From the NCBI GenBank assembly GCA_949152475.1, contig OX424561.1, forward strand, positions 28,266,481 through 28,330,480: a stretch of 64,000 nt of DNA. The letters are read 5' to 3'. A program made the translations under genes and the position numbers. The DNA comes from Terebella lapidaria (taxonomy: Eukaryota; Annelida; Polychaeta; Terebellida; Terebellidae). The notes under the pieces are model-generated. The model saw nothing but the letters and a program-made list of their open reading frames with translations, was not told the origin of the DNA and did not search any database. Of the stretch, positions 25,423 to 64,000 are shown piece by piece (the stretch's first letter is position 1; each line of letters opens with the position of its first letter).

Positions 25423-25427
25423 GCGAG

Positions 25428-32541: not shown

Positions 32542-32731
32542 CCCTTCATGAAAAGAGGCCGGTTTCGGGGTCGGAGCTTGACATTTTGTACAAGGAGCTG
32601 AGGTGTGGGCTGGGCCGGCTGCGGGGTCGTTATTGGTGTTGTTACCGGTACAGTAGTCGTGACAACCGCAGATGTGGAGCGGGGAACGTTGTCCTGTTGT
32701 CTGGAAGGCCCTTGCTCCTCAGCACCTTCCC

Positions 32732-34901
32732 CTACTGGTTTGACGACGGGGTCGGAGGTGTTGGTGGGGCCGGTTTAGTTTGGTTACCGGTTTGGTTAGG
32801 TACTGACAACACTTGAGCTGTCCTTCTGTCAGTACCGGGACCATTAGGCCGAAATGCTAGTGGTTTCATGCCGTTGCGTACTAGCACATCCTTAAGCCGA
32901 AAGCACCGCATCCAGCGATGGCCGGGCTTCTTGCAAAAGAAGCAAACCATGGGTCGTCCGGGTTGCGGGGGTCGATCACCTTTCATCGGGGCCGTTGTTC
33001 GCAGGACAGAAAAGATAGCCGTTTCCTCACATAGTCCATTCTCGTCACTAAGGACGCACTGGAAAGCTTCAGCCACCCACTCGCGTGAGCTGGCCGGCAC
33101 TGAATGTTCGTCGCAACCTTGTAGGCCGGTAGTGTCACTGTCCCGCTTGAGGAACGGAAAATCGTTCGGGTTCCCAGCCCTCTAGAAGTTGGCGACGGAA
33201 CTCTCCCCAGGGAGTCGCGACCGGGATATTTAGAGCTAGCGCTTCAGCGCGGCCGCGCAGCGTGCTCCGGAAGGTCGTCGTCTTGTTGAGGTCGGAGTAA
33301 GTGAAAGCCGCAGTAAACTGTTCGAAACTCCGAATGTATTGAGTGAGATTGCCCTCCTTGAAGGTCGCACGCCATTGAGCCATTTTAGCCGTAGCCAACG
33401 TTTGGGGCTCAGACGTGAGTCTCTGTGGCGTGGGCGCTGCAGTGGCCGTCGGTGTAGTCGCTGCAGTGGCCGTCGGAGTCGGAACAGCCGAAGTCGCCGG
33501 AGCCGTCGTATCTGGGCCGATCGGGGTCGCGTTAGCGGGGGCGGTCGGTGCTGTCGTCGCGGAGACGGCGAGCGATGCGGCGGGTGGTGCCGTCGTGTGA
33601 CTGGGGTCGTGTGGTGCTTGTGCAGCGGGGGCCGGTTGACTGTATGGAGGCGTCACCCATGGTATCCCGACTGAGGGTGGGAATACAGCCGGTGGTGGAT
33701 ATCGGTATACCGATCCATCTGGGCATACACCATGGTACACTAATCCGGGTTGTGCACCATGATAGCCGGTGTCAGCTATCACGCTGGGAACGCCACCATA
33801 TCCGGGCGGTGGGTTCGCGTAGCCGACATGCGGTGAATAGTATCCGACAGCTACTCCATTTGGAACACCGCTTGTTGCGCCAGGGTATCCGACTGGCGGT
33901 ACACCATATCCGTTGGTGTTTCCGACTGATTGTGAGATCGGAGGTCCGATCATTGGCACAACACTTTCTGCCGGAGCAGACACAACTTGATCTTGTGACG
34001 GATCAAAGCGCGGTTGTTCTCGGGTAGTCGGCGATGGTCGGTGTGTGGTCGGCGCGGGAGCGCGTGTGTCGGAAGTCGGCGTGTCGGGGTCGTAGGGTCG
34101 ACGACTTGATGTCGAGGGTGCTTGTCGGGGTCGCGCTTGTCGCATGGTGGCGCGAGATTCCGTCATCGTGTCGCTGGGTCGTTGTTGTCGTAGAGGCGTC
34201 GCGATCCGGGTAGCGGTCGTCGCCGGGATGTCTTCGGATGTCGCTCCCATCTGGCTGGGTCGTGTGTACTCTACCACCGTAGGCTCGGTCGGTATGCGTG
34301 AGTACATTTCTGGCGCGGGGTCGTGTTGTCTCGGCGTCATGGACGGCGCCAGGGGTCGATTGGCCGAATAAGCGTTCGGCGGGGTCGGTTCCGGAACATT
34401 GTCAGACTGACAAACCCACTGTCGTATCCGAGAGTTACTTGGTGGGTGTGTAACCATTGACGTGTCTATGGTTACCGGCCGAACGTTCACTGCTAATTGT
34501 TCTGGGTCGATATCACGATCTACGCTCGCTCTTTGACGTGAGCGCGTATAGTTTCTGTCGGCAAAGTCACTTTTCTGGGTCGCTCTAGCCGGCGTGGCCG
34601 AGTACGCTCTAGCGTGTGCACGCAGAATGTCACTTACTGTATGTGACGGCGCGAGCAGGTCTTCGTCTAGGAACTCCTGCACCAGGTCGGTAGGCGGCGA
34701 AAACGATCTCAGGGACGAATGGTCGCCGATGGAGTCGAAAAGGCCGGACGGTTGTTGCTCCTGCGACAGTGGAACCGTATCGCTCATGGTAACTGAGCGA
34801 GGGCCGGAAGGTCGGAAGGCCGGATTCGGATTGATCGTCACTTCGTCATCCGTGGGGTCGAGTGGCTCACCGAGGGAAGCTCCCGGGGCCAATGCCATCA
34901 A
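32732..34901 (-). CDS. gag: gag region of the LTR element
   Basis: A long N-terminal region is rich in Pro, Thr, Ala and Tyr/Gly, including repeats around PPVGYPGA and GYYSPHVGYANPPPGY. A capsid-like helical part follows (KMAQWRATFKEGNLTQYIRS). The 3' part has one zinc knuckle, CFFCKKPGHRWMRC. The capsid and knuckle lie in different frames. A single CCHC knuckle is usual for animal Ty3/gypsy gag. The long low-complexity N-terminal region is unusual. Confidence 0.8.
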
Positions 34902-34942
34902 TGCCGGTCAGGTCTGGGTCGAAGATCCGAGACTAGCTCAGA

Positions 34943-43298: not shown

Positions 43299-43425
43299 CC
43301 CTTCCACCCACTCTCGGACAGATTTAAAAGGCACAAAAATACAACTCGATGAAGTTATGGTGACTGCTGCATGCAAGGTACCGGCCGGTGTTATGACGAC
43401 TGCATGTTCCATATATGGATACTAA

Positions 43426-46150
43426 TAGTCGGGCATGTACGGGGGGTCCCTTTGCACCCCCCCATGATCCTCCAAAACCAACTTTTTTCTCAAGGTTTTT
43501 TAATACTAATAAACATTACATATGTCTCCGGTTGCGCATCCATTGCAAAAATTGGTTTTCGGGCGATTTTTCAAAATGGCCGCCCCGCGAAGTCTCGAAT
43601 TTTGAGATTGCTTCACTTTAAGCTGCATAGGTCTACAAAATAAAATCTTTGTTACCTTTTGCTGCTCATTGTAGGGGCCTTATACATTGTACATGAGAAA
43701 ACAGTGGTTAAATAAACATTTATACTATGAATATGTCCATAAATCCAAGATGGCCGCCAAATTTAGATAATTTTTCACTAAAATGTCCATAACTTCGGAC
43801 TGAGTCAACCTAGGATGTTCATTTTGGGGTCTATACCTAGGTTTTCATATACAGGGAATCCATTTAGACCAAAATAAATACAATCAAGCTATTTCTTTTG
43901 ATGCATGCATCCAAGATGGCCGCCAAATTTAGATAATTTTTCACTAAAATGTCCATAACTTTGGACTGAGTCAACCTAGGATGTTCATTTTGGGGTCTAT
44001 ATCTAGGTTTTCATATACAGGGAATCCATTCAGACCAAAATGAATACAATCAAGCTATTTCTTTTGATGCATGTACACCTGCACACATGGTACACGCTAC
44101 ACATTCATTTAGATATCTCTCGAAAATAGCCCCCTTGACACCCTTATGGTCTCAATTGTGGATCTTGCTTGGATATTTCTGATAGAGACTTTTACTGATT
44201 TGCAATTCCAATAAATCCTTGAACAAATAGAGCTTGATTTGATTAGTTTTGTTAATTAACAGAAATCGAAGATGCCTGCTAAACACACCCCGAAAATTCA
44301 AGTTCGTAACTAATTGTGCTATAAAGATGTGTGATACTTACTTTCAAGGGTATTTTTGGTGTGTAGATTCCATTTTTGGTGTTATTCTAGCTATATAATA
44401 TCAATTTAAAATGATAACAGCATCTCATTGAGATGGAAAGCAAATAAAAACATATTGTTATTTGAATTTATTCATAAACTTGTGCATTACGCATTACTCA
44501 CCAACATGCTTGGGATATTTTTTATATCACAAACAGAGAACAATAATGTAGAATATCTTCATTGGCTATCTTAACAAATGAACACGATGGAACATGTTAC
44601 TATGATATTGGTACTGCTATATTGGCTGACTTATTAACTGATGATGTCTTCACCATTGCCCTGCATTCTCTTGCAGTACAACAACGTTGTCTTGAGCTGT
44701 CCGACATCATACCACTCAACATCCTCTATCTCAGTTCTGGAAAATTCTACATCACTTTTGCCACAATAGTCTCTTTCATTGATCTAGTCTCATTCATTGA
44801 TCTAGACACACCTTCGTGTACGGGTTGCCACTCTCCTGGGGCTGAACAGTTGTAATGCAAGTGATGTCGGACAGCTCAAGACAACGTTGTTGTACTGCAA
44901 GAGAATGCAGGGCAATGGTGAAGACATCATCAACTAATATGTCAATTCAGCCGATATAGCAGTACCAATATCATAGTACCATGTTCCATCATGTTCATGT
45001 GTTAAGATAGCCAATGAAGATATTCTACATTATTGTTCTCTGTTTGTGATATAAAAAATATCCCAAGCATGTTGGTGAGTAATGCGTAATGCACAAGTGT
45101 ATGAATAAATTCAAATAACAATATGTTTTTATTTGCTTTCCATCTCAATGAGATGCTGTTATCATTTTAAATTGATATTATATAGCTAGAATAACACCAA
45201 AAATGGAATCTACATACCAAAATACCCTTGAAAGTAAGTATCACACATCTTTATAGCACAATTAGTTACGAACTTGAATTTTCGGGGTGTGTTTAGCAGG
45301 CATCTTCGATTTCTGTTAATTAACAAAACTAATCAAATCAAGCTCTATTTGTTCAAGGATTTATTGGAATTGCAAATCAGTAAAAGTCTCTATCAGAAAT
45401 ATCCAAGCAAGATCCACAATTGAGACCATAAGGGTGTCAAGGGGGCTATTTTCGAGAGATATCTAAATGAATGTGTAGCGTGTACCATGTGTGCAGGTGT
45501 ACATGCATCAAAAGAAATAGCTTGATTGTATTCATTTTGGTCTGAATGGATTCCCTGTATATGAAAACCTAGATATAGACCCCAAAATGAACATCCTAGG
45601 TTGACTCAGTCCAAAGTTATGGACATTTTAGTGAAAAATTATCTAAATTTGGCGGCCATCTTGGATGCATGCATCAAAAGAAATAGCTTGATTGTATTTA
45701 TTTTGGTCTAAATGGATTCCCTGTATATGAAAACCTAGGTATAGACCCCAAAATGAACATCCTAGGTTGACTCAGTCCGAAGTTATGGACATTTTAGTGA
45801 AAAATTATCTAAATTTGGCGGCCATCTTGGATTTATGGACATATTCATAGTATAAATGTTTATTTAACCACTGTTTTCTCATGTACAATGTATAAGGCCC
45901 CTACAATGAGCAGCAAAAGGTAACAAAGATTTTATTTTGTAGACCTATGCAGCTTAAAGTGAAGCAATCTCAAAATTCGAGACTTCGCGGGGCGGCCATT
46001 TTGAAAAATCGCCCGAAAACCAATTTTTGCAATGGATGCGCAACCGGAGACATATGTAATGTTTATTAGTATTAAAAAACCTTGAGAAAAAAGTTGGTTT
46101 TGGAGGATCATGGGGGGGGTGCAAAGGGACCCCCCGTACATGCCCGACTA
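43426..46150. mobile_element. 2.7-kb near-perfect palindrome (fold-back element)
   Basis: The left arm (43426 to about 44,712) is mirrored by the right arm (about 44,860-46150) at very high identity, leaving a loop of about 150 bp. The ends are TAGTCGGGCATG and its complement, with TAA on both outer sides, a possible 3-bp target duplication. Each arm holds two direct units of about 170 bp with AAGATGGCCGCCAAATTTAG. The two minus/plus peptide-like frames at the tips are mirror images and not genes. Confidence 0.85.
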
Positions 46151-46285
46151 TAAGCGTTTAGAATACTTTTGTGGTCCAAAGTCCACTGGCGGTCCAGCTG
46201 TATTTTTTCCATGGACACTAAGCATTTAGAATACTATTGTGGTCCAACGTCCACCGGCGGTCCAGCTGTACTTTTTTCGATGTAG
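46151..46285 (+). repeat. Two tandem units of about 66 bp beside the palindrome
   Basis: The unit contains TTTAGAATACT, TTGTGGTCCAA and CGGTCCAGCTGTA and occurs twice immediately right of the palindrome. Only a few substitutions separate the copies. Confidence 0.7.
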
Positions 46286-46878: not shown

Positions 46879-47428
46879 TCAGTGTGTTGCATATATGTAT
46901 GGAATAGCATCGCCTTGACATCTGCATACTGTTGTATGTGACAACAAAGTGCTATTTCCAACTTGCGCATGCTCCATAAGGTCTCCCCTTCTCACAGCAG
47001 CCAGTACTGTATCTGAAAATACAAAGTAGGTTTTTGTGATTCATTTTGTCATTATCGAATTTAGTATTAAAATTTGCAAATGGATCTATGTACCAGTGAT
47101 AGTGAATACATCTGTTTTTGTGCTTGGTGTAAGTATCAACATATTACAAGCAATACAACCAGATTTTGGTGATGCCAATTGAACATCAAATCTGAAATAC
47201 AATTTTGGAATAGAAACAGAGCCGACCAAACAGTTTATCCAAAGACAAAATTGCGTTATCAGGGTCAGACAGTGTGTAAAAACGTGTTCCTAGTTTGTTT
47301 ATGTTTTGTTTTACAATTGATAGCAAATTTCTCACCCATCTAACTTCAGTGTGAAGTGCTTGTATTCTATGAGAGGCTGTCGCCTCACATACCCACGACT
47401 TTACAGGACCAGTTCCAGCACCATCTTC
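46879..47428 (-). CDS. Unidentified gene, three 3' exons, head to head with the helicase
   Basis: Proposed minus-strand exons are 47232-47428, 47094-47191 and 46879-47012, ending in a stop. They join in phase through GT-AG sites, two of them with good TTTCAG acceptors. The reading includes EDGAGTGPVKSWVCEAT, RFYTLSDPDNAILSLDKL, FDVQLASPKSGCIACNM and a tail VCRCQGDAIPYIYATH. The intron between the first two would be only 40 bases. The N-terminal exons were not found and I recognise no domain. The gene's 5' side faces the helicase start, about 500 bp away, so the pair may share a promoter and belong to the same mobile locus. Confidence 0.5.
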
Positions 47429-47939
47429 CTTTAAATGGAAAGCAATGCATTAGTTAATTTAGCAAAGATTTAGTTAATTTATGCATTAATAATCATCATA
47501 AGTGAGAAATGGTCGTGTTTTACTGATTTCGTCACAGTAGTTTATTGCCTCGAATGGAAATGAGTAGCCATGAGATCATTTTCTATATGATTGAAATTGT
47601 GTGATATGAAACATTACCAGATCTACGAGGTATTTTTTACTGCAAACACTCACACAACCTACTTCAATTTCCTACACATTTCATGGTAACTTAGGGCAGC
47701 CAGCGGGGGCTTAGGAAGCCATCATTGTCCGCCGGCAATCCTCTAACACGGCTAAAACCGAGGGATTCGGTTTTATGCTACTGGGGCTTAAAAACACAGA
47801 TAAGCATTGAATAAAAACTACTTTTCGAATACCTGTGTTATTGTCTTTCAATTTCAAACTTCATTGCACACTTGTTTGTCGCAAGTTATTCCATAAACAT
47901 CCCTCAATCTGCTGAAGCGAACGTTCAGAAAGCGCGGCC

Positions 47940-48000
47940 ATCCTGTTGACATTACGAATGTGGGCGTTGGCAGACCACGTGATTTTTCAGCCAATCAGAG
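47940..48000 (+). promoter_or_regulatory. Promoter-like region of the helicase gene
   Basis: A relatively GC-rich stretch upstream of the helicase start holds CACGTG (47976-47981) and AGCCAATCAG (47989-47998), a CCAAT box. The spacing to the first ATG fits a TATA-less promoter. It lies between two divergently read genes, so it could act in both directions. Confidence 0.4.
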
Positions 48001-48080
48001 GGAGGCTTCTGACACCGCTACCAAAACGAGTACTAGAGTCTTTGAAAAGGGTTCACTTGTGTAAAACAATACATGTATAC

Positions 48081-51000
48081 ATGTACAGAGAGCAAGCAAT
48101 CGCCGAAGGAGAGATAACAAAGATGTATGATGAAAAGGATATTTTGGCTGCGTACGAAAAACACATCAAGCACGCATTTGAATTGAACCTGAAGGAAGAG
48201 CAGGTGAAACTGATTACAATGATTTGCAACAAAAAGAATGTTTTGGGGGTGTTACCAACAGGATATGGAAAGAGCATAATATACACACTTGCTCCGCTGA
48301 TCATGGATAAGGTACGAAGTTTGTTTCAGTCATTTTTCTGCATGAAGTTTCGATATAGAGGGCAGTAATAAACTTTTCTGCCCCTCTGATGTTTACTAAT
48401 AGCTAGTGTACCTATTTATGAGAAGACGACAAAATGATAGATGGTAGTCGGTAGCAAAGATTTTCTGTTCCAAGAAAGTCCACTCGGGGTATACAGATAA
48501 TGGCCGCCGCTGAGCTAAGGCCGCAAATTCATCTGTAATTGTAGACCCGTAGGCCTATATAGGTGCGATTCCATATTTCTGCTGTTGTTTCTACTGTTGT
48601 TTCTACACGTATACATTTCTTATCTTTTAGCTGAAGTGGGATATATTGGTATAGAAAATCTTTGATGATAGTTGTGGTAAAAATTAATTAGACTGTATGA
48701 ATGTTTCCTGGCTAAACTAACACTCAGGCTAATGACAGTCTTCTTAACGAACAATGGGTGTATTTTTGTGTACGGATCAGAAATCTGACGGAGATAAAGC
48801 AACTGTTTAGGAATAAATGCATCCATACAAATTGTATAGCCTAAGTTATTGTGTCAGAATGTGTGCCCAGTTACCCTTACTGAAATGGCTGACATTGAAA
48901 CCTCGCGAAATCCTAAACAAAAATTCTGATAGAGTATTTACATGAAGGAATGAACAATAACGGAACTTGTAAAATAATGATGAAAAAAATAGTTATTTGC
49001 AAGATTTGGGTTTGAGGCTATAATGGGTTTTGAGCTCATCATGCAAGATTTTTTTTCATGAAAACGCATACTATAATTGTTATAAAAACGCAGTCTACAA
49101 GAATGTAGCAATGTGCGGCGCCTGAATCAGCCTGATTATCCATTGTAGCTGTAAATGTCACTGGTTGTTAATTGTAATTGAAGAAGTTTGGAAAAAATAT
49201 TAACGCTACTTTAAACAAACTAGTAAGCATAGGAGAACAAATCTGAGCAAGCATGAATGAAATTGGCTTAGTGCGAAACTGAGACAAAAGTAAATACAAC
49301 ATCATAGCAGATGAATGATTTGTAGAAGTAACCAATGGCAAGACTGTCCGTTAAGTGTTAATATTTGTGTGTGTGTGTGCATCACATGTAGCTGGAGCCA
49401 ACAGCTGCACCCCACATCGTCTTGGTGATTTCTCCGTTGCTGGCACTGATGAGTGACCAACAAGAACAATTGAAGAGATGTGGAGTTTCTACGGCAGCTA
49501 TTACTGAACGAAAATCTATGGAAGATGACGAAGTTGAAGGTAACTTGATGAGAATTTTAATATGGATTATCCTTCAGGTTCTGAATATTACACCATGAAT
49601 GTGCGACGCAATATCTATGTCCATGGTTTGTAGCTGTCAATATATTTTGATTCACGTGCAGATATAAAGAAAGGCGTCCGACAGGTTGTAATTGCATCAC
49701 CGGAGTCAATTGTGTCAAAAGAATGGCGTGAAATGCTGCGTAGCGACACTTACAAACACCAATTAGTGTGTATTGTTTATGACGAAGCACATTGTATCTC
49801 TGACTGGTGAGTAAATAAGATACGATCAACATCATTTATTGAACAGAACTTTCATTTCACAGACAATGTTACATATGAATGGTATAATTTCCCAAAAAGA
49901 GCACAAGTGAAATCAAAACATATAGAATCATTTTGAAAAAAAGAAGCAGTAACTTCAAGACACATGCAACGTATGACGTTTTTTCAAACATATCTGGATA
50001 GCTCTGACATTTGATGATTTTTTTACATTGAACAAAAATGTTTTTGTGTAGGGGCTCCGACTTCAGGCCTGCATATTCGGAGGTATGCACTTTGAAAGCT
50101 GTGGCCGACTGCTCAGTTTGTTTGCTGACAACAACATGCTCTCGTCAGGTCCGCAACGATCTGCTGGAAGAATTTGGACTGCAGTATTTAGAGCAAGTCG
50201 CTGTAATGCCAGACAGGTAAGACTTGACAAATAAATAAGGTCTATGTACATGATCAATTAGTTGATGAAATCAATGTACCTAGTCATCACTGGTGTCGGT
50301 TTCACCGAGGACATTGCGAGAAATGTCTGCTGCAGTTTCGAGGACAGCATCTTCATCTGTATGCAAAGGGTAGCTATCCAGTAGGTTGTCCATCCTCTTG
50401 TTGTGGCGCAATAGTGCAGCCTTCACCCGTCCTGGATTGTTCACATCGAGTTTGTATTGGAAGTCCTCGAAGCCCTTGTGCTGTCTGGTACCCATGTACT
50501 GTACGAGTTTGAGAGACTGGTGAACACGGATATATTCCCGTACAACTTTCTGCTGAGCAGCCTCTTTGTCTTCTCTGTCTGCGGCGCCCATGATGGCCAC
50601 CAGACAACGTTTCGGTGAACAGTTTGTCCAGGTCTTTTCCCATGGCTCCAGCCAGCCTGCCTTTCCTGCGAACGTTTTTTTCTGTGTATTTTCCGCTGCT
50701 GTCCTTCAGCATGGCTAAAAAGTTATGAACAAATATTCATCCTATAATAATTTTGTTACCATGGTTACATGGAAAATAATATGAAACAAACACAGCAAGT
50801 GTTTAACAAGAAAAATCTGGAAACAACTGCTTACACTTGAAGTCATTGTTGACGAATTCATTGTAGCGGTCAACAGGGATATTGTGTCCACTTCCACCAG
50901 ACAGATTGACGGTCCTGTCCCAGGTTACACTGTGGGAGAGTCTGTCACTCCACACACCATTGACACCTAGAACCACGATCATTATTGTCTTCTGAACGAG

Positions 51001-54000
51001 TTGAATACATACATATTCCAACAAAAACACACCCCTCGAGAATGGACTTTTTTTCGAGAGTTGTACATGTAATACCGACTATACCTGTCAGTAGCATATG
51101 CCCGATTAGGAAGTAATTCCTGTGGTTTTTTTCTGCGAACTCGGGCATGCTTAATCTCCAATCTCTATTGAGGGCCGGTTGTTGAACCCACAAATGTTAA
51201 AACGCCCACAAATGTGAAAACCCACAAATGTGAAAAAAACATTTGTAAATCACCCACAAATGTAAAAAAAATCAACCACAAATGTGACAACGTTTTTTGT
51301 CAACTACCCACAAATGTGAAAATCTTCACCCACATATGTGAAAAAAACTTCACCCACAAATGTGAAAAAAAAAATCAACCACAAATGTGAAAACGATTTT
51401 TGTCAATTGCCCACAAATGTGAAAATCTGACACAACATTAGCTTCAACATGAGGAATGTTTTTAGGTTACCGACCTTTGTTCTGAAAACCTATTGCACAA
51501 TTAATACTTTCCCCTATTATCATCATTTTTCCATAAAAACCTTCATATCTCAGTAAATATTGATCGTAGAGCAAAAAGGACGTTATTTTCGGAACCGTAG
51601 GACAAATTGGCCATACTAGTGTGGTTTAGTATAAGATTACACCTGTGATGTCAAATTACACCAAACCGGAAGTAGAAATATTTTTCAAGGAAATGGGCTC
51701 ATGATGCCCAAGGATCAGTTATTAGGCCGTTTTGGTGTGTTTGAAGGCCAAAAATTTACACTTTCCCCTATTATCACCCACTTTTCCATAAAAACCTTCA
51801 TATCTCAGTAAAGATTGATCGTAGAGCAAGAAGGACATTATTTTCGAACCCATAGGGCTAATTGGCAATATACTAGGCGTGGTTTGGTATCAAATTACAC
51901 CTGTGGTATCAAATTACACCAAACCGGAAGTAGAATTATTTTTCAAGGAAATGGGCTCAGGATGCCCAAGGATCAGTTATTAGGCCGTTTTGGTCTGTTT
52001 GAAGGCCAAAAATTTACACTTTCCCCTATTATCACGCACTTTTCCATAAAAACCTTCATATCTCAGTAAAGAATGATCTTAGAGCAAAAAGGACATTATT
52101 TTCGAACCCATAGGGCTAATTGGCAATATACTAGGCGTGGTTTGGTATCAAATTACACCTGTTGTGTCAAATTACACCAAACCGGAAGTAGAATTATTTT
52201 TCAAGGAAATGGGCTCAGGATGCCCAAAATCAGTTATTAGGCCGTTTTGGGGTGTTTGAAGGCCAAAAATTGATACTTTCCCCTATTATCACCCACGTTT
52301 CCATAAAAACCTCCATATCTCAGTAAATATTGATCGTAGAGCAAAAAGGACATTATTTTTGAACCCGTAGGGCTAATTGGCAATATACTAGGTGTGGTTT
52401 GGTATCAGATTACACCTGTGGTGTCAAATGACACCAAACCGGAAGTAGAATTATTTTTCAAGGAAATGGGCTCAGGATGCCCAAGGATCAACAAGGCCGG
52501 ACGAACAACACGCCCAAGCGTTGTGGTTCCGGGGACCCCCCCCCCCCATGATTCTCGGGCCTCACGTAACGGCAACATTACTATTATTATTTATTATATG
52601 ATATGTGATATGTGATGTGATGTTTGTCTACTAACCATGCTATGACGGTACTAACCTGGTTGCTACTTAACGAAGTCACATTCGTTACAAAAATTTAAAG
52701 ATAAAATTGTTTACGGACGACGGATGGACGGACGACGGACGACGGACACAACGCGATGCCAATAGGTTATCGGACCAAAAGTCCGGTAGCCCAAAATATC
52801 TTTCAGGAAAGTGCATTCCTGTATTCTTAGGCATTTTAGCGCAAATTTCGAAAGATTCGACCGTAAATTCGAGATAAAAATAAAAATGTAAGACGTATGA
52901 CGGACGACGACGGATGAAGGACGCAATGCCATGCAATGGGTTATCAGAACAAGGTTCCGTAAAAAGACATAACAATAAAAGACATTTCTTATGTGGAACC
53001 TAATGCTGTGTTTGATTTTCACATTTGTGGGCAAATGACAAAAACCGTTTTCACATTTGTGGTTAAATTTTTTTTTCACATTTGTGGGTGGATTTTTTTT
53101 CACATTTGTGGGTAATGATATTTTCACATTTGTGGGTGATTTACAAAATTTGTTTTCACATTTGTGGGTTTTCACATTTGTGGACGTTTTAACATTTGTG
53201 GGTTCAACAGCCGGTCCATCACCTTCTCTGATGATATCCCTCGTCGCCATGTCCATTAGTCCCCGGAAGCCCAATGCTTTTGAATAAGCAAGTACACCAT
53301 CATGTTTGGTGTTTCCCACACCTTTGCGACACTCCAAACTGCAGAACCAATCTTTCGTGATGTTGCAAATTCTCGTTCGTCCTATTTATGAATGATGGAA
53401 GTTATGCGTCGAATGGGTGTTTGTCATTTGAAGGTAATGAATTGTTAAGGGTTGTCAGCGGAGTCAAAACATTATGGTAAAGATAAAAACAATATTAACA
53501 ATGTTAAATAATATATACACGTATAGTACATGTGTACAAAAAACCTGATGTAAGTACCTCGATTCTGTGATGCAAAAACATATGTTGAATTGATCAATTG
53601 ACGTGCAAATATTTTCACGTATGCCCTTATTAGTAACAGCATAGGCGCGGCTGTTTCGTCACTACAAAGCTGAGGTATATATACACATATATTGAAAGTA
53701 TTTGCACTCAGTGTTAATGCATGAGAGGGAGAGAGATAGGTAATACATAATGACGAAGAATAGTCAGATGGACGTCTAGAAGAAAATGAAACCACATAGG
53801 CAGAGAACACCAGAAGCCACATGTACACGCAAGTCACTTCACTTTGAAGCATGCTGCAACATTGTAGAGGATACTGCTAACAGCATACCACATGTATACA
53901 TTGTATAATTGTCATCACTTCACAACTTACCCATTTACACGGCACCTGGAACAATATTTCGATTTCACATCATTTTTAATAATGTTACTTGTTTGACATT

Positions 54001-57000
54001 GACAATTAATTTATCCTGTATTCATATTCACATGTTGGGCTCAATTAAGATGGCGTACATGTGCATACCTGATGTAAGTACCTCGATTCTGTAATGCAAA
54101 AACATATGTTGAATTGATCAATTGACGTGCAAATATTTTCACGTATGCCCTTATTAGTAACAGCATAGGCGCGGCTGTTTCGTCACTACAAAGCTGAGGT
54201 ATATATACACATATATTGAAAGTATTTGCACTCAGTGTTAATGCATGAGAGGGAGAGAGATAGGTAATACATAATGACGAAGAATAGTCAGATGGACGTC
54301 TAGAAGAAAATGAAACCACATAGGCAGAGAACACCAGAAGCCACATGTACACGCAAGTCACTTCACTTTGAAGCATGCTGCAACATTGTAGAGGATACTG
54401 CTAACAGCATACCACATGTATACATTGTATAATTGTCATCACTTCACAACTTACCCATTTACACGGCACCTGGAACAATATTTCGATTTCACATCATTTT
54501 TAATAATGTTACTTGTTTGACATTGACAATTAATTTATCCTGTATTCATATTCACATGTTGGGCTCAATTAAGATGGCGTACATGTGCATACTCAATTTC
54601 TCTTCATACTATAACGTGTGGCACTCATTAAATGAAATTGATAATATACAAGTTTTCAACCTACCAAACGGTTCTGACAGCTGTGTGATATACCCTACGC
54701 ATGACGGGTGGAAGAGTCTGCCTCGTTTGCAGTTGCCCTTGGCCTGGCACTCAATCAGAGGTTCCCGTTTTTTTAACCTACAAACGCACCAGTGGCCGCC
54801 TCTGGACTCCTTACAGTCATCGCAGCAAAACCACTCATCCGGTGGTGCCTCATCCAGTCCCACGCATGGGAGGTGATACCATCTGCCTTTGCACCACGGG
54901 TTAGAGCATTCCACCATATCTATGTCGTCTGCTCCATATGAAGCGTGCAAAATTTACCAATTGAGTATTCGACAACGATTAATGTACATACATGTACATA
55001 TGTACACATACCACTTGTGATTGTTAAATTTGCACATAACTCACCTAGCTTTTCTCCACAATGACAATATTCACGCCCATCTGTACCACTGTCATCATTC
55101 TCGACGATATTCATGATGTCAGTCATGGGTGTTTCATGCCAAAAAAATTTGACAACTTCCTTCACTGTTTCCTGAAGAACGTTTTCGCTTGAAGAGATGG
55201 CGGATCTGTTCACTTGTTCTGGCGACTGAATGTTCAGTAGTTTCATCGCTACCAGACAAATTAGGCCTTTGGTCGTCAAGTTAAGCATGTCTTCAATATG
55301 ATTAAAGGACTCGCTGGCCTTGTCATTCACACTCTTCAAGTCGAACAATAACTTCGTGTTGTAGAGTGTTCCTCTGCTCGATGCGCTCTCTTTCGTGTAC
55401 AGCATGTTCATGGTGTCTTGTAAGTGTAGAATTCTCCTATGGAAATCACCAGCGGCGGGATAAATACCTTCCAACCTTTCTGCAGGAGTTGCACTGGCCA
55501 CTCTCGAGCGCTTCGCAGCATACATTCCGATGACTGATGCAGCATCACCAAACACTGGCACCGGCAATGGAGCTTTAGCGGAACCGTCCGGAAACGGAAT
55601 GAAGTTGTGAAGCTGGTCCAGGACATGCAAGAGGCCGACAGACTCCCCTGGATTTTCTGGGATGATCCCTATTGTCACCAATTCTGACTTCTTCCGTGAT
55701 TCCCGACTGTAGATGTGCCCTACCGGTGGTGGCATTGGTGACTTGGAGAAGCAATCCAGGTGTGACACCAGTATTCTCTGGACGATCACCTCCATCCGGG
55801 TACGCATCACTTCTTTATCCTCGGGCGTTGGGTGCAGGTCTAGAAGGGCTACGTCTGAGCACCTTTTGTTGGAACATTCACCTTCTGGATTTGGGACAGG
55901 AGGTGGAAATCTACTTCGTGCCGCATAGGCACTGGTCCAGATGTGAATTGTCTTTCTGGAATCTTTGCTTTTTCGCTTCCTCTTCGACTGTGAATCGCTG
56001 ACGAGCGATCCCTGGTGGCGTGCTTTTTCCTCTATGCCCACGTTGTCGAAGCAGAGGCCAAAGTAGACAGGTTCTACAATGGGAGTTGCTGAACATATTA
56101 TAATGTTATGTGAATATTATAATACATGTACACAGCTGTATATAGTAAGTAAATTTTCGAACAGGGATGTTTGTTATTTGTCAGCGATCAATCCATTTGT
56201 ACCTGGTTTCTCCTGTATCTTTGTGTCGTCGAGACGCTCTGCCAAAATGTTCTCCGACTCTTGGCTTTGTCCCCCGAACAATTTCTTGGGTGCCAACCCG
56301 GTGGATGCTCCTTGTCGACCATCCCCGTCCAGCTCTCTGTCCGTTTCCCAATTGTCCTCTGACACTGTGAGGGGCTCATCGGCCGGTGTTTCTGGCGTGC
56401 TTGACGATGACCCAGTAGACATGTCCTCATCACTGTTCCTCTGTTTACACAGGCAAGTACACAACTTGCTACAATCCGTATTGAAATCAAGTTAGTGGAA
56501 ATATGACACAACATGTATATTAATCTAAAAACCTGGAATGACTGCTTCCATTTCACCAGCTCTCGTGTACTCTGTGCTCCAAGGCGATCAGCGTTGCTGA
56601 GAGCTGCTCCATAGCTCTGGCATAGTCCCAGACGATGCTGGCAATCGAATATCTAAATGTTGTTTGAATATGTAATTGAGCATACCATTAAGTCAGGTTT
56701 CTGTTGTGCAATGGTCATGGACTCATTGATGTATATTGTATGTTTTGATTTACAATTTATCTTCCATAGTGTATTTTCGGAATAGTTGTATAGTCATTAC
56801 ATGGGATATTAAATAGATAACATTTTATAACTATAATAATCATCCTATAATAATTTTGTTACCATGGTTACATGGAAAATAATATGAAACAAACACAGCA
56901 AGTGTTTAACAAGAAAAATCTGGAAACAACTGCTTACACTTGAAGTCATTGTTGACGAATTCATTGTAGCGGTCAACAGGGATATTGTGTCCACTTCCAC

Positions 57001-60000
57001 CAGACAGATTGACGGTCCTGTCCCAGGTTACACTGCGGGAGAGTCTGTCACTCCACACACCATTGACACCTAGAACCACGATCATTATTGTCTTCTGAAC
57101 GAGATGAATACATACATATACCAACAGAAACACACCCCTCGAGAATGGACTTTTTTCGAGAGTTGTACATGTAATACCGACTATACCTGTCAGTAGCATA
57201 TGCCCGATTAGGAAGTAATTCCTGTGGTTTTTTTCTGCGAACTCGGGCATGCTTAATCTCCAATCTCTATTGAGGGCCGGTCCACCACCTTCTCTGATGA
57301 TATCCCTCATCGCCATGTCCATTAGTCCCCGGAAGCCCAATGCTTTTGAATAAGCAAGTACACCATCATGTTTGGTGTTTCCCACACCTTTGCGACACTC
57401 CAAACTGCAGAACCAATCTTTCGTGATGTTGCAAATTCTCGTTCGTCCTATTTATGAATGATGGAAGTTATGCGTCAAATGGGTGTTTGTCATTTGAAGG
57501 TAATGAATTGTTAAGGGTTGTCAGCGGAGTCAAAACATTATGGTAAAGGTAAAAACAATATTAACAATGTTAAATAATATATACACGTATAGTACATGTG
57601 TACAAAAAACCTGATGTAAGTACCTCGATTCTGTAATGCAAAAACATATGTTGAATTGATCAATTGACGTGCAAATATTTTCACGTATGCCCTTATTAGT
57701 AACAGCATAGGCGCGGCTGTTTCGTCACTACAAAGCTGAGGTATATATACACATATATTGAAAGTATTTGCACTCAGTGTTAATGCATGAGAGGGAGAGA
57801 GATAGGTAATACATAATGACGAAGAATAGTCAGATGGACGTCTAGAAGAAAATGAAACCACATAGGCAGAGAACACCAGAAGCCACATGTACACGCAAGT
57901 CACTTCACTTTGAAGCATGCTGCAACATTGTAGAGGATACTGCTAACAGCATACCACATGTATACATTGTATAATTGTCATCACTTCACAACTTACCCAT
58001 TTACACGGCACCTGGAACAATATTTCGATTTCACATCATTTTTAATAATGTTACTTGTTTGACATTGACAATTAATTTATCCTGTATTCATATTCACATG
58101 TTGTGCTCAATTAAGATGGCGTACATGTGCATACTCAATTTCTCTTCATACTATAACGTGTGGCACTCATTAAATGAAATTGATAATATACAAGTTTTCA
58201 ACCTACCAAACGGTTCTGACAGCTGTGTGATATACCCTACGCATGACGGGTGGAAGAGTCTGCTTTGTTTGCAGTTGCCCTTGGCCTGGCACTCAATCAG
58301 AGGTTCCCGTTTTTTTAACCTACAAACGCACCAGTGGCCGCCTCTGGACTCCTTACAGTCATCGCAGCAAAACCACTCATCCGGTGGTGCCTCATCCAGT
58401 CCCACGCATGGGAGGTGATACCATCTGCCTTTGCACCACGGGTTAGAGCATTCCACCATATCTATGTCGTCTGCTCCATATGAAGCGTGCAAAATTTACC
58501 AATTGAGTATTCGACAACGATTAATGTACATACATGTACATATGTACACATACCACTTGTGATTGTTAAATTTGCACATAACTCACCTAGCTTTTCTCCA
58601 CAATGACAATATTCACGCCCATCTGTACCACTGTCATCATTCTCGACGATATTCATGATGTCAGTCATGGGTGTTTCATGCCAAAAAAATTTGACAACTT
58701 CCTTTACTGTTTCCTGAAGAACGTTTTCGCTTGAAGAGATGGCGGATCTGTTCACTTGTTCTGGCGACTGAATGTTCAGTAGTTTCATCGATACCAGACA
58801 AATTAGGCCTTTGGTCGTCAAGTTAAGCATGTCTTCAATATGATTAAAGGACTCGCTGGCCTTGTCATTCACACTCTTCAAGTCGAACAATAACTTCGTG
58901 TTGTAGAGTGTTCCTCTGCTCGATGCGCTCTCTTTCGTGTACAGCATGTTCATGGTGTCTTGTAAGTGTAGAATTCTCCTATGGAAATCACCAGCGGCGG
59001 GATAAATACCTTCCAACCTTTCTGCAGGAGTTGCACTGGCCACTCTCGAGCGCTTCGCAGCATACATTCCGATGACTGATGCAGCATCACCAAACACTGG
59101 CACCGTCAATGGAGCTTTAGCGGAACCGTCCGGAAACGGAATGAAGTTGTGAAGCTGGTCCAGGACATGCAAGAGGCCGACAGACTCCCCTGGATTTTCT
59201 GGGATGATCCCTATTATCACCAATTCTGACTTCTTCCGTGATTCCTGACTGTAGATGTGCCCTACCGGTGGTGGCATTGGTGACTTGGAGAAGCAATCCA
59301 GGTGTGACACCAGTATTCTCTGGACGATCACCTCCATCCGGGTACGCATCACTTCTTTATCCTCGGGCGTTGGGAGCAGGTCTAGAAGGGCTACGTCTGA
59401 GCACCTTTTCTTGGAACATTCACCTTCTGGATTTGGGACAGGAGGTGGAAATCTACTTCGTGCCGCATAGGCACTGGTCCAGATGTGAATTGTCTTGCTG
59501 GAATCTTTGCTTTTTCGCTTCCTCTTCGACTGTGAATCGCTGACGAGCGATCCCTGGTGGCGTGCTTTTTCCTCTATGCCGAAGCAGAGGCCAAAGTAGA
59601 CAGGTTCTACAATGGGAGTTGCTGAACATATTATAATGTTATGTGAATATTATAATACATGTACACAGCTGTATATAGTAAGTAAATTTTCGAACAGGGA
59701 TGTTTGTTATTTGTCAGCGATCAATCCATTTGTACCTGGTTTCTCCTGTATCTTTGTGTCGTCGAGACGCTCTGCCAAAATGTTCTCCGACTCTTGGCTT
59801 TGTCCCCCGAACAATTTCTTGGGTGCCAACCCGGTGGATGCTCCTTGTCGACCATCCCCGTCCAGCTCTCTGTCCGTTTCCCAATTGTCCTCTGACACTG
59901 TGAGGGGCTCATCGGCCGGTGTTTCTGGCGTGCTTGACGATGACCCAGTAGACATGTCCTCATCACTGTTCCTCTGTTTACACAGGCAAGTACACAACTT

Positions 60001-61371
60001 GCTACAATCCGTATTGAAATCAAGTTAGTGGAAATATGACACAACATGTATATTAATCTAAAAACCTGGAATGACTGCTTCCATTTCACCAGCTCTCGTG
60101 TACTCTGTGCTCCAAGGCGATCAGCGTTGCTGAGAGCTGCTCCATAGCTCTGGCATAGTCCCAGACGATGCAGGCAATCGAATATCTAAATGTTGTTTGA
60201 ATATGTAATTGAGCATACCATTAAGTCAGGTTTCTGTTGTGCAATGGTCATGGACTCATTGATGTATATTGTATGTTTTGATTTACAATTTATCTTCCAT
60301 AGTGTATTTTCGGAATAGTTGTATAGTCATTACATGGGATATTAAATAGATAACATTTTATAACAGTGTTTGCTCCTTGTGGCGCCAGTATGGCTTTAGA
60401 CGTGAATATGACTGGGATTTGGGATTTGTATCCATTCTACAGATGTTGTATTTAATTTTACCGTTGCCATCACTGACATCTGCTTGTGCACATTGAAATA
60501 CTAAGAAGTATGTTGAGCATTTACTATTCATATATGATTTTATTTTGTACAGTCACAATTTTTTGTTCCCATATTTTTCAGGCCGAACATCTTCCTCCAT
60601 TTCACATGCAAGTCAGACATGGATATTAGCCAACTTGATTGGCTTTCTCGGGAAATTGAAACCAGGGGAATAAATATGCCTAAAACCATAATATACACCC
60701 CGTTTGCATCATCCTGTGCAACAGTGTACGATTTCCTGCTGTCAAATCTGAAACTGAAGGCATATGTGGATGAACACAGATTCTTCAAAAATCGCCTTAT
60801 CGCAATGTATTTTGCAAATATTGGAGAAACTACAAAATCATATGTGCAGAAGGAGTTCACAAAGCCAGATAGTGTTATTCGTGTGATGATCAGCACTGTT
60901 GCATTCGGGCTCGGTATAAACATTCCCGATATCAAGCAAGTGATACACTGGGGATGCAGTCGGAATGCCTTGAGCTATTGGCAGGAAATTGGACGTGCAG
61001 GTAGAGATGGTGAGCATGTTGAAACACACATGTATGTCGTTCCGGAGCTATTCAAGGGACAAGCACAGGACAAGGACTTCGCACGTAAAATGAAAGAATT
61101 AGGTGGTCTTGTCATCCGCGAATCTCGTGGCAGCAAATCAAAATGCACACAAACTGACGAAACCTCTTTCGAGGGCGCCAGTTCTATGACAAGTGAGGGA
61201 GAAGAACTCAAACCATGTCTACGTCGTGCAATACTAGAAGAACTTATACTAGAGAAAATGAAAGGACTATCAATCCTTGATTCACTGGAGTGCTCGGGAT
61301 CAAGTTCTTCATGCCCACTGAGAAAGTGTTGTTCCCTATGTGTAAAGCGTTGTGGATGCCAGCAAAACTAA
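48081..61371 (+). CDS. RecQ-family DNA helicase, five exons
   Basis: Exons 48081-48311, 49392-49539, 49662-49806, 50052-50216 and 60582-61371 join in phase into about 492 residues with no stop. Motif I is GVLPTGYGKS, motif Ia VISPLLALMSDQQ, and motif II plus the RecQ signature YDEAHCISDW then GSDFRPAYSEV. Exon 4 to 5 rejoins the family sequence DRPNIFLHF. Motifs V and VI are STVAFGLGINIPD and QEIGRAGRDG. Motif III is altered: LTTTCS instead of LTATA. The C-terminus has a Cys cluster (CPLRKCCSLCVKRCGCQQN) rather than RQC or HRDC domains, as in the many RecQ-like copies of invertebrate genomes. It should unwind DNA 3'-5' using ATP in the nucleus. An alternative start is the ATG at 48123. Intron 4 spans 10.4 kb and holds most of an antisense gene. 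Confidence 0.85.
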
Positions 61372-63867
61372 AACAATGTGGTGATGTGATTCCAGTTGTG
61401 TTGGTTAATAATCGTCTGTGAACATTGACCAAATGCATTATCATTATAGTGGTGGCTCTAGTGAGCACCAATGTAACTTGTAAGTGAATTTGTTACAAAA
61501 TATGTTAATACCTTTCTTGAGCATCCTCCTCTGTACAGCATAATACCAACCAGAGCGGGAACGAACTTCCATTTGAAGGGCCTCGTCTTGTATAACAACA
61601 TGGCAATGCACGTACCAAGTGTCATACTTAACTTTTGTCTGCGATTAAAAAAAATTAGCCCAAAGGCTAAGATAGGTTACCGGACAATTTTGGTTTGGCC
61701 ATGGCAGCATTGGCAGGTAACAGACCTCTTACCAATCAAGGTTCGCAGTGTAAACATATGACCTTGGGATTTACCAATCAAGGTCATCCGTATGAACTTC
61801 GATGTTACCATTACATTTGATATTCTATATGTTGGGTGGAATCGTTTAGGCCGCTCAGGTCAATTTACACATTCCAAGTCAGACATTTGGCACTGAAGGT
61901 CATCTGACGTCAAGTTCAAGGTCATCATTAGTTGTGCCATATATGTCTTCCTATATGTTCATAATGCAAACATGAGCTCTATCTGCAAGCATTTCATCTA
62001 TAGAGGCAAATCTGGGCATTTTTTGACCCCAAAATGGCTGTTTTGACCTTTCAAGGTCATCGAAGGTCAAATTCAAGGTCACCACACAAGTCGACATATA
62101 TGACTTCCCATTTGAAAATGCCAATTTGAAAATGCCAATGCAAACATGAGCTCTATCTGCAAGCATTTCATCTATAGAGGCAAATCTGGGCATTTTTTTT
62201 ACCCCAAAATGGCTGTTTTGACCTTTCAAGGTCATCGAAGGTCAAATTCAAGGTCACCACACAAGTCGCCATATATGACTTCCCATTTGAAAATGCCAAT
62301 TTCTAAGCTCTATCTTCAAGCGTTCTATGAGTACAGTCTTGACAGCTCCCATTATGAAGGAAAAAAGTGCTGAAAATTTTCTAAGTCCAAAATTTGGGGC
62401 GAAAATTTTTTTTTTTCGCGTACTCGTCAAAAATTCAAAATGGCCGCCACACGGAGATCGGCGAAGCAAGGGCAACAAAACTAATACACGTCACAGAGGT
62501 ATATAAGAGGAATCTTTTAAAGCAAAAATCTCAAAACTGATCAGACAGTTTTTGAGAAAATACAGACCAGGTGCAAATTTGAGCATTTTTCGACCCCAAA
62601 ATGGCTGTTTTGACCTTTCAAGGTCATTCAAGGTCACCACACAAGTCGCCATATATGACTTCCCATTTGAAAGTGCCAATTTCTAAGCTCTATCTTCAAG
62701 CGTTCTATGAGTACAGTCCGGACAGCTCCCATTATGAAGGAAAAAAGTGCCGAAAATTTTTTTCAAAGGGTGAAAAATTTTTTTTGCAATAGAAATAGCC
62801 CAAAATGGATAGTAATGCGATTTGGGGCGAAAAAAAATTTTTTTGCCGACCCGACAAAAATTCAAAATGGCCGCCACACGGAAACCGGCGAATTTAGGGC
62901 AACCAAACTTATACATATCACAGAGGTATATGAGGGGAATCTTTTGAAACCAAAAACTCAAAACTGATCAGACAGTTTTTGAGAAAATGGCCGTCGAAGT
63001 CCAAAATTGCGCGTTTTTCGACGAAAATGGCCGCCATTTTGAAAAAATTGCGAAAATCAAAAAACAAAAAAATACCTCCTTCTCAAAATATTTTTAGGCA
63101 TTTTTGTGCAAAATTTCAGAAAGATTCGATCGTTAACTTTAAAGATAAAAATGTTAACGACGGACGGACGGACGGACGGACGGACGACGGACGCAACGCC
63201 ATGCCAATAGGTTATCGGACCAAAGGTCCGGTAACCTAAAAAAAAACGTTTTGTGTTCATGTTGTCATTTATATTCAGCACTTCTCTAGGAACTCCAGTA
63301 ATCTAGCTAGCTATATCAATACATCGCACAATCTGTGCATTCTCATTCTATTCATTTACCATTATTTATAAGAAAATATATGTAATTATACACACTGGGC
63401 ATCAGAATTGTCCGAGGTGAGGGTTGCAGCACATATAGCTGAATACAAAGTAGGCATGGAATCTTTCACGTTTTTGCAGATGTCCTGCCACGAAAAATTT
63501 TCCAGAGATTCTCTTGTGACTGTATCTGATAAATCGCTTGTAGTGAGCAAACCGTATCCTCGTACCTCATCTTTTATCTGTGCATAATTATATGTGGTAA
63601 TAAATTTCTTGTTTTCTTACACCATACCATCACCTTGTTGCTTGAAATATTTATTTGAATACTGACTCGGGGGCGTAAGCCCTGTGGATCGCCAGTTCTC
63701 TCCCTTCCCGGGACGTGTGACATAGGCTCTGGCCAGCATGTCGGACTGTACGGGGTTCCGTCCCCGAGGCAGACCGCAGCTCGCCAGGCCCCGCCAGTTA
63801 ACACCGTGGTGATGAACCAGTTTCTGAACGGTGTCCGTAGGTCTGGGAGTGTCGGGTGGGCTGTTAC
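50280..63867 (-). CDS. DUF6589-type protein with two PHD fingers, interlocked with the helicase gene
   Basis: Unique 5' exons 63634-63867, 63396-63570 and 61512-61638 read VNWRGLASCGLPRGR, ENFSWQDICKNVKDSMPTL and IAMLLYKTRPFKWKFVPALV. The middle exons exist twice (copies B and A). A unique terminal part at 50280-50714 reads VREYIRVHQSLKLVQYMG. The core VPVFGDAASVIGMYAAKRSR followed by RLEGIYPAAGDFHRRILHLQ and SARGTLYN-like text, and late HNIPVDRYNEFVNNDFK, match what I recall of DUF6589 (compare FGD...RRMLLLQDTM and NIPLDLHMEHLN). PHD finger 1 is split YCHCGEK / VECSNPWCKGRWYHLPC / WFCCDDC. PHD 2 is WCVCRLKK / ECQAKGNC / LFHPSC / DWFCSLEC. The domain probably acts on DNA as a transposase-like core, an inference. 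The terminal exon seems to need a frame change near 50,600. Confidence 0.65.
51180..53209. mobile_element. 2,030-bp DNA transposon with 57-bp TIRs, iterated subterminal motifs and 6-bp target duplication
   Basis: The ends are inverted 57-bp repeats starting TGTTGAACCCACAAATGTTA with one mismatch, flanked by GCCGGT at 51174-51179 and 53210-53215. Copy B has the uninterrupted site (GGGCCGGTCCACC) near 57,275-57,290. Next to the ends the word CCACAAATGTGAAAA is repeated about ten times on the left and eight on the right in inverted orientation. The interior has four tandem units of about 256 bp starting CTTTCCCCTATTATCA, then a fragment of another repeat rich in GGACGACGGA. No transposase is encoded. 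It splits a coding exon of the DUF6589-PHD gene. Confidence 0.9.
53544..54591 (-). repeat. 524-bp tandem duplication inside a copy A intron
   Basis: The segment starting CCTGATGTAAGTACCTCG at 53,544 restarts at 54,068. Copy B has it once (57,610-58,135). The units are almost identical, so the event is younger than or similar in age to the A/B duplication. The frames in it are intronic and not supported as coding. Confidence 0.85.
56840..60364 (-). repeat. Duplication copy B of the DUF6589-PHD middle exons
   Basis: Copy B holds exons 60219-60254, 60066-60185, 59736-59973, 58587-59621, 58207-58470, 57187-57447 and 56938-57069, which join in phase. The exon at 58587-59621 is nine bases shorter than in copy A: FGLCFDNVGIEE becomes FGLCFGIEE. 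The copy has no transposon insertion and no terminal exon of its own, and eight filler bases separate it from copy A. A message from the unique 5' exons through copy B could reach the terminal exon only by splicing past copy A. Confidence 0.85.
61372..61511. other. Helicase 3' flank
   Basis: Short AT-rich stretch between the helicase stop codon and the third 5' exon of the antisense gene. I saw no canonical AATAAA here, so the helicase 3' end may run into the antisense exon. Confidence 0.3.
61668..63237. mobile_element. Non-autonomous element with TAGGTTACCGGAC ends and a GGAC minisatellite
   Basis: The left end TAGGTTACCGGACAATTTTGG is inverted at the right end (CCAAAGGTCCGGTAACCTA). The interior has about four diverged 130-170-bp units, each with AAAATGGCTGTTTTGACC and AAGGTCA words. 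Near the right end are tandem GGAC repeats followed by GCAACGCCATGCCAATAGG. A fragment of the same family lies at about 52,690-52,990. The element occupies an intron of the DUF6589-PHD gene. Similar non-autonomous elements with tandem cores are common in marine invertebrates; the superfamily is unknown. Confidence 0.7.
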
Positions 63868-64000
63868 CTGGTTACCGTTAATGCTGAAGTAGTTACCGTG
63901 TCCGCAGTGACCTCCGGTGAGCAGCGCCGCCGCAAGGATCCGGAATAGCGGATGCGCGTCCGCAAGGACTCGCGGTGAGAGGACTATCCTCGAGGATCCC
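63868..64000 (-). other. GC-rich window edge, probable upstream exon of the DUF6589-PHD gene
   Basis: The minus strand is open in one frame (ADAHPLFRILAAALLTGGHC) up to a possible donor G|GTAACT that would be in phase with the exon at 63634-63867. The implied intron is only 29 bases, so a simple continuous frame or a different splice is equally possible. The window ends here. Confidence 0.25.

What the first reader, a model, noticed from the sequence alone, without database searches (positions are those of the whole stretch)
46879..63867. Interlocked antisense genes: RecQ helicase and DUF6589-PHD protein occupy each other's introns
Seen: helicase exon 5 (60582-61371) lies between minus-strand exons at 61512-61638 and 60219-60254. 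Nearly all other minus-strand exons lie in helicase intron 4 (50217-60581). Both gene models keep phase at nearly every junction. Known: RecQ-like genes are highly multiplied in many marine invertebrates, and Academ-type DNA transposons that pair a transposase with an SF2 helicase have been described. Inference: this is a mobile or domesticated transposase-helicase module with PHD chromatin readers in an unusual interleaved layout. Antisense overlap could couple expression of the two proteins.
Basis: partly seen in the sequence, partly recalled or inferred. Interest (0 to 1): 0.85.

Follow-up and report, generated by a model that had tools for sequence, protein, structure and literature searches.

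The report
Transposon with two interlocked antisense genes
This stretch is a damaged copy of a jumping gene in an animal-like genome whose two proteins, a DNA-moving enzyme and a DNA-unwinding helicase, are written on opposite strands with part of each gene lying inside an intron of the other, a layout shared by several related jumping genes and apparently derived from an ordinary side-by-side layout.

Summary
The interleaving is real and not peculiar to this locus. A RecQ-like helicase (+, five exons, open throughout) and a DUF6589 protein with PHD fingers (-) lie in each other's introns. The unit is a DNA transposon: a sister copy is 9.3 kb with an exact 9-bp target duplication, and three short relatives with the same ends have exact 9-bp duplications too. 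Four families, about 50% identical in protein, share the order helicase E1-4 | transposase C-half | helicase E5 | transposase N-half and the same intron phases. Of 50 DUF6589-helicase pairs found in this genome, 49 lie on opposite strands; in 39 the helicase C-end is 3' of DUF6589. One such tail-to-tail relative has the same two introns at 152 and 157 bp, so interlocking is probably derived, by exchange of two blocks through existing introns. The PHD fingers sit inside the transposase core. The window copy's transposase is wrecked: right end missing, tandem duplication, two insertions, frameshift. Closest known kind: AcademH; likely, but no Academ transposase was at hand for comparison. 'Domesticated' is not supported; antisense coupling is untested.

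The parts
47687..63658 (.). transposon copy (family A), right end missing; 15,972 bp here because of a duplication and two insertions, against 9,312 bp in the sister copy
   Evidence: 98.9-99.7% identity to C1:15688713-15698024 piece by piece, unrelated flanks
47687..47711 (+). left terminus TAACTTAGGGCAGCCAGCGGGGGCT
   Evidence: 25 of 37 genome matches to the sister copy's first 501 bp start exactly at its first base; 17 of 17 left ends read begin TAACTTAG, 15 different exact flanks, two of them near-identical
48081..48311 (+). helicase exon E1 (start codon inferred), Walker A GVLPTGYGKS
   Evidence: matches in families B and C
49392..49539 (+). helicase exon E2
49662..49806 (+). helicase exon E3, DEAH box
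50052..50216 (+). helicase exon E4; ends in a split codon (AG|G, Arg)
   Evidence: same phase 2 in families B, C, D and in tail-to-tail C383
50217..60581 (+). helicase intron 4, holding transposase exons T10-T5 on the other strand
   Evidence: 4,232 bp in the sister copy, 4,281 in B, 6,444 in C, about 3.4 kb in D, 152 bp in C383
60582..61371 (+). helicase exon E5 (Helicase_C, Cys-rich C-end), inside transposase intron T4-T5
63396..63577 (-). transposase exon T3; T1 and T2 lie beyond the break in the sister copy
61512..61638 (-). transposase exon T4
60066..60185 (-). transposase exon T5 (unit 2); T4|T5 phase 0
   Evidence: same phase in B, C, D; in C383 T5 is matched and T4 was placed by eye
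59736..59973 (-). transposase exon T5b, acidic linker (unit 2)
58587..59606 (-). transposase exon T6, DUF6589 core (unit 2); 9 nt shorter than unit 1, lacking Asp-Asn-Val of the first conserved Asp motif
   Evidence: PF20231 3.8e-12
58207..58470 (-). transposase exon T7, PHD finger 1 and start of PHD 2 (unit 2)
57187..57447 (-). transposase exon T8, end of PHD 2 (unit 2)
56938..57069 (-). transposase exon T9 with the DRYNEFVN motif (unit 2)
50280..50714 (-). transposase exon T10, frameshifted here; its stop codon ends 63 bp from helicase exon E4
50723..56831 (-). tandem duplicate, unit 1 (second T5 56533-56652, T5b 56203-56440, T6 55045-56073, T7 54665-54928, T8 split by an insertion, T9 50835-50966)
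56825..60364 (-). tandem duplicate, unit 2
   Evidence: the sister copy has a single unit
51180..53209 (.). foreign insertion in T8 of unit 1, inverted-repeat ends, apparent 6-bp target duplication GCCGGT
   Evidence: absent from the sister copy
61655..63237 (.). foreign insertion between T3 and T4
   Evidence: absent from the sister copy

Best explanation
A DDE-type cut-and-paste DNA transposon of the AcademH kind, in a lineage whose two genes are interlocked. The + strand makes a 492-aa RecQ-like SF2 helicase, the - strand a DUF6589 transposase of more than 930 aa with two PHD fingers set into its core. Shown: opposite strands, mutual intron occupancy, the same order in four families, conserved phases, element ends, 9-bp target duplications, and a tail-to-tail relative with the same two introns empty. 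Inferred: DUF6589 cuts and joins at a 9-bp stagger (conserved D, D and E); the helicase helps open ends or repair the gap; the PHD fingers read histone tails and so steer or tune insertion; both messages are spliced out of overlapping convergent transcripts. Inferred origin: block [E5] and block [T10-T5] changed places between introns E4/E5 and T4/T5, most simply by tandem duplication of [E5 T10...T5] and complementary loss. The window copy can still code for the helicase but not for a working transposase.
For: Window models: helicase 4 of 4 junctions GT-AG and open. E4|E5 falls in a split codon with phase 2 in A, B, C, D and C383; T4|T5 phase 0 in A, B, C, D. Order seen in the sister copy, C16, C6, C1:97.1M and C17; a decayed A-like copy at C2:17.12M keeps the PHD-exon/T6/T5/E5 part of it. 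9-bp exact flanking repeats in 4 of 4 copies with both ends located, in four flanks. PF20231 is one stretch 287-788 of the C6 protein with a PHD (PF00628, 548-593, 2.3e-5) inside it. Helicase: DEAD 7.8e-22, Helicase_C 2.2e-12, best solved relative WRN 8.5e-39. Relatives predicted as one protein across the E4|E5 point: Tubulanus P0002 (38% over 96%) and Saccostrea P0003. 50 of 76 DUF6589 matches have a helicase match within 15 kb (0.43 expected), 49 of 50 on the other strand. Interlocked families form one side of a branch, 100/99.
Against: No transcript data. Family B: no target duplication found at its right end; family C: no end found. Terminal inverted repeats are at most 2-4 bp. No structure: the AlphaFold model of P0001 failed (pLDDT 39.6) and the profile found no solved relative (best E 0.16). 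No Academ transposase was at hand. Polyadenylation signals (AATAAA/ATTAAA) are missing behind T10 in all four copies checked and behind E5 in the two A copies; present behind E5 in C16 and C6. No relic of a duplicate block appeared among the matches. The three odd nested loci (C12, C1:90.2M, C7:24.8M) show that E5-side helicase is not unique to this clade.
Confidence: 0.82

Rival explanations
1. The order is accidental: a helicase pseudogene and a transposase pseudogene were jumbled at this locus by rearrangement.
For: The window copy is duplicated, inserted into and truncated.
Against: The sister copy and loci of three other families have the same order and phases, and both proteins show the codon pattern of selection.
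Confidence: 0.02
2. The helicase is made in two pieces: E1-E4 and E5 are separate genes that are not spliced over the transposase exons.
For: Intron 4 is long (3.4-10.4 kb) for this element; no RNA evidence; no poly(A) signal was found behind E5 in family A.
Against: The split codon completes in frame in all of A, B, C, D (Arg, Arg, Arg, Lys) and C383 has the same intron at 152 bp; relatives are predicted as one protein.
Confidence: 0.08
3. It is a domesticated host locus that uses transposase and helicase jointly.
For: The helicase frame is still open in the window.
Against: Copies at unrelated sites, a 9-bp target duplication on the sister copy, and a broken transposase here.
Confidence: 0.03
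4. A transposon of another superfamily (KolobokH, MULE-like or an undescribed one) rather than AcademH.
For: KolobokH also has a RecQ helicase, and Kolobok-1_CCri has one on the complementary strand (PMC9587614, passages); DUF6589 has no hit in the held literature; terminal inverted repeats are almost absent.
Against: 9-bp duplications of unlike sequence, not TTAA (Kolobok's TTAA is recalled); AcademH has 9 or 10 bp (PMC10045372, passage); Pfam reports only DUF6589 and PHD at E 0.1 or better in the transposase.
Confidence: 0.25

Closest known systems
AcademH DNA transposons (Kojima 2020; that paper not held, known here through passages of PMC10045372, PMC10799480 and PMC8290104)
   Same: DNA transposon with an SF2 helicase beside the transposase; 9-bp target duplications against the reported 9 or 10
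   Different: Genes interlocked in each other's introns; two PHD fingers inside the transposase core. Whether published AcademH elements include such forms could not be checked
KolobokH and Kolobok-1_CCri (PMC9587614, passages)
   Same: RecQ helicase carried by a DNA transposon; in Kolobok-1_CCri on the complementary strand
   Different: Another superfamily; 9-bp duplications here; no nesting is mentioned in the passages seen
Nested genes in introns of host genes (e.g. 2mit in tim2, PMC3786989, search listing only)
   Same: Antisense gene within an intron
   Different: Here the nesting is mutual and lies within one mobile element

Membership tests
AcademH | second gene encodes an SF2 helicase | tested here: met
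   DEAD 7.8e-22 and Helicase_C 2.2e-12; RecQ/WRN by sequence
AcademH | 9 or 10-bp target duplications (source: passage in PMC10045372) | tested here: met
   exact 9 bp in 4 of 4 copies with both ends located; family B none found, C ends not found
AcademH | Academ-type DDE transposase | not testable with these tools
   no Academ reference sequence held; DUF6589 motifs D, D, E read by eye; structure prediction failed
AcademH | terminal inverted repeats | tested here: inconclusive
   ends TAAC... and ...GCTA share only TA(R)C; the defining form of AcademH ends was not available to me
AcademX | 3 or 4-bp target duplications and a nuclease gene | tested here: not met
   9 bp; helicase instead of nuclease
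KolobokH | TTAA target duplication (recalled) | tested here: not met
   TGCCAACAC, CTACAGTCA, TCTTTCAAT, CTAGACTAG
MULE (9-bp duplications possible, recalled) | MULE transposase domain PF10551 | tested here: not met
   not among Pfam matches at E up to 0.1 for the C6 transposase
DUF6589 (PF20231) | match above the curated cut-off | tested here: met
   46.1 bits in the window exon, 76.2 in the spliced C6 protein, cut-off 27

The most novel reading that the evidence does not exclude
A lineage of DNA transposons has locked its two genes together: each holds essential exons inside an intron of the other, so no simple deletion or exchange can remove one gene and spare the other, and each primary transcript is antisense to exons of its partner, which gives the element a built-in brake. 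Helicase-in-transposase-intron nesting has also arisen in a second helicase lineage (C12), so such nesting is favoured or easily reached in DUF6589-helicase elements.
Probability: 0.2. Interest if true: 0.8.

Novelty: new variant of a known kind. Interest (0 to 1): 0.62.

Why it matters
Genes nested in introns are common; two genes each nested in the other, inside one mobile element and kept through divergence to about 50% protein identity, is unusual and raises plain questions of splicing and of transposon control. A close relative with the same introns empty makes the origin traceable. The data also tie the unnamed Pfam family DUF6589 to transposase function (50 of 76 matches next to a helicase; exact target duplications) and show chromatin-reader fingers set into its core.

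Tried and rejected
Accidental jumble: dropped. Structure: AlphaFold on P0001 with 8 rows gave pLDDT 39.6 and was not used. Profile against solved structures: best E 0.16. Viral contigs: no match. Papers: 'DUF6589' 0 papers; Kojima 2020 not held; searches gave no paper on interlocked genes of a transposon in their listings (listings only; 25 or fewer titles seen per search). Helicase N-end census: not completed, so the 39 'tail-to-tail' rows rest on the C-end alone, except C383, read in full. L049 (C12): helicase C-exon lies between transposase exons; its N-end was not found. Duplication-and-loss origin: no relic of the lost blocks seen, so it stays an inference; direct exchange of blocks is equally possible. 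The tree left 3 of 11 inner branches open and has one long row; C_C6 fills 41% of columns.
Full report
Setting. The window is G000:C7:28266481-28330480 of an unnamed 761.6-Mb eukaryotic genome. Pfam on the long open frames gave DUF6589 on the minus strand (58462-59649, 3.8e-12; a second, near-identical frame at 54920-56116), weak PHD matches below the cut-off, Helicase_C on the plus strand (60538-61371, 3.5e-12) and a weak DEAD match at 47916-48368.

A second copy shows what is original. C1:15688713 onwards matches the window at 98.9-99.7% from 47687 to 63658 but has one copy of the middle block and lacks 51180-53209 and 61655-63237. Flanks differ. The window copy therefore has a tandem duplication and two insertions, and breaks off at 63658; the missing right part (1.06 kb, with transposase exons T1 and T2) was not found in 30 kb downstream.

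Ends and target duplications. In the sister copy the left end TAACTTAGGG is preceded by TGCCAACAC, and the same nine bases follow ...CACAATGCTA 9,312 bp further on. A genome search with the first 501 bp gave 37 matches (capped list), 25 of them starting exactly at base 1. Of 17 left ends read, 17 begin TAACTTAG, with 15 different exact flanks, two of which are near-identical. The right end was looked for in three 2.33-kb relatives; all three have exact 9-bp repeats: CTACAGTCA, TCTTTCAAT, CTAGACTAG. The other left ends had no 8- to 11-bp exact repeat within the about 1.5 kb held, where the right end is not expected. Family B right ends agree between two loci, but no target duplication was found. 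Inverted repeats are limited to TA(R)C; the right end has a short palindrome GGCGTCAATACGCC.

Gene models. Helicase, plus: 48081-48311, 49392-49539, 49662-49806, 50052-50216, 60582-61371; GT-AG at 4 of 4 introns, 492 aa, open. Transposase, minus: 63396-63577, 61512-61638, 60066-60185, 59736-59973, 58587-59606, 58207-58470, 57187-57447, 56938-57069, 50280-50714, in phase from T3 to T9, T10 frameshifted. Start codon of the helicase and T1/T2 borders are inferred or unknown. The sister copy is not intact either: E4 has two extra bases (167 against 165) and T7 a small loss.

The layout recurs. tblastn of sister-copy frames finds, in C16, C6 and C1:97.1M, helicase exons, then T10-T5 on the other strand, then E5, then T4, T3 and T1. 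Not every exon was found everywhere: C1:97.1M shows no E1 and E2, T2 was found only in C6, and E5 of C6 is in two pieces. C17:22.72M gives a fourth family: E3, E4 | T10-T5 | E5 | T4, T3, T1 (the stretch held starts at E3). A decayed A-like copy at C2:17.12M keeps the PHD-exon, T6, T5 and E5 in that order. E4|E5 lies in a split codon, phase 2: Arg in A, B, C, Lys in D; T4|T5 is phase 0 in A, B, C, D. Protein identity between families in E5 is 52-58% (A, B, C) and 48% for D.

Ordinary relatives. 76 DUF6589 matches were paired with 145 helicase C-end matches, both capped lists of exon matches rather than elements. 50 of 76 have a helicase match within 15 kb (0.43 expected), 26 have none; 49 of 50 are on the opposite strand; 39 have it on the 3' side, 10 on the 5' side (the window counted twice), 1 on the same strand. 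The ten are the six interlocked loci above (seven rows) and three loci of another kind. C383, of the 3'-side kind, was read: E2-E5 in a row, then the transposase tail to tail, with one PHD finger; its E4|E5 intron has the same place and phase but 152 bp, and T4|T5 157 bp, T4 being placed by eye without a database hit. In a 14-row helicase tree A, B, C and D fall on one side of a branch with 100/99 support, within a group that also holds C383 and bivalve and nemertean proteins.

Reading. The simplest history is that an element with E1-E5 followed by T10-T1 exchanged [E5] and [T10-T5] between two existing introns, perhaps by tandem duplication and complementary loss. The window's own fresh duplication of the T9-T5 block shows that such duplications happen in this element. 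A second type of nesting occurs at C12:19.54M: a helicase C-exon, closest to P0005 and P0010 (41%), lies between transposase exons.

Transposase anatomy. The spliced C6 protein matches PF20231 as one stretch (287-788) with a PHD inside; P0001, a metagenomic protein of 564 aa, has the same make-up in one frame. Among loci read, the slot holds two PHD fingers (A-D, P0001), one (C383), a C2H2-like finger (L004) or nothing (L001, L002, L005, L007), judged by eye. Conserved Asp (CFDN), Asp (HGD) and Glu (DRYNEF) fit a DDE triad; this is read from alignments, not tested. Unit 2 of the window lacks the first Asp motif; unit 1 keeps it.

Function. Transposition with a 9-bp stagger is supported by the flanks. 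The helicase's role in opening ends or repairing gaps, histone reading by the PHD fingers, and mutual antisense control are inferences. The mature exons of the two genes do not overlap in the models, but the primary transcripts must; T10's stop lies 63 bp from E4, and E5's stop 140 bp from T4. Poly(A) signals were found behind E5 only in C16 and C6, and behind T10 in none of the four copies checked.

Literature. PMC10045372, PMC10799480, PMC8290104, PMC9587614, PMC10294476 and PMC12210899 were seen as passages only. The AcademH paper itself was not held, so I cannot say whether interlocked AcademH elements are already in print.

Noticed in passing
window 43422-46154: Large inverted repeat, arms about 1.3 kb at 98.7%, just left of the element.
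   Followed up: no
window 24004-34907: GC-rich block (0.51-0.62) with long minus-strand frames; the 1107-aa frame 29395-32718 looks like a Ty3-type pol by eye; no profile run.
   Followed up: no
window 63659-64000 and L011: GC-rich foreign sequence follows directly where the element breaks off.
   Followed up: partly
window 53543-54592: A 524-bp direct repeat in an intron of unit 1 only.
   Followed up: no
L049 (C12:19537600-19543600), helicase 2019-2858: Different nesting: helicase C-exon of another lineage between transposase exons.
   Followed up: partly
L043, L044, L046: Non-autonomous 2.33-kb family, 98.7-98.8% alike between copies, sharing both ends with the element, so probably moved recently by it.
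   Followed up: partly
L001, L003, L004: The same slot of DUF6589 holds nothing, a PHD or a C2H2-like finger in different families (by eye).
   Followed up: partly
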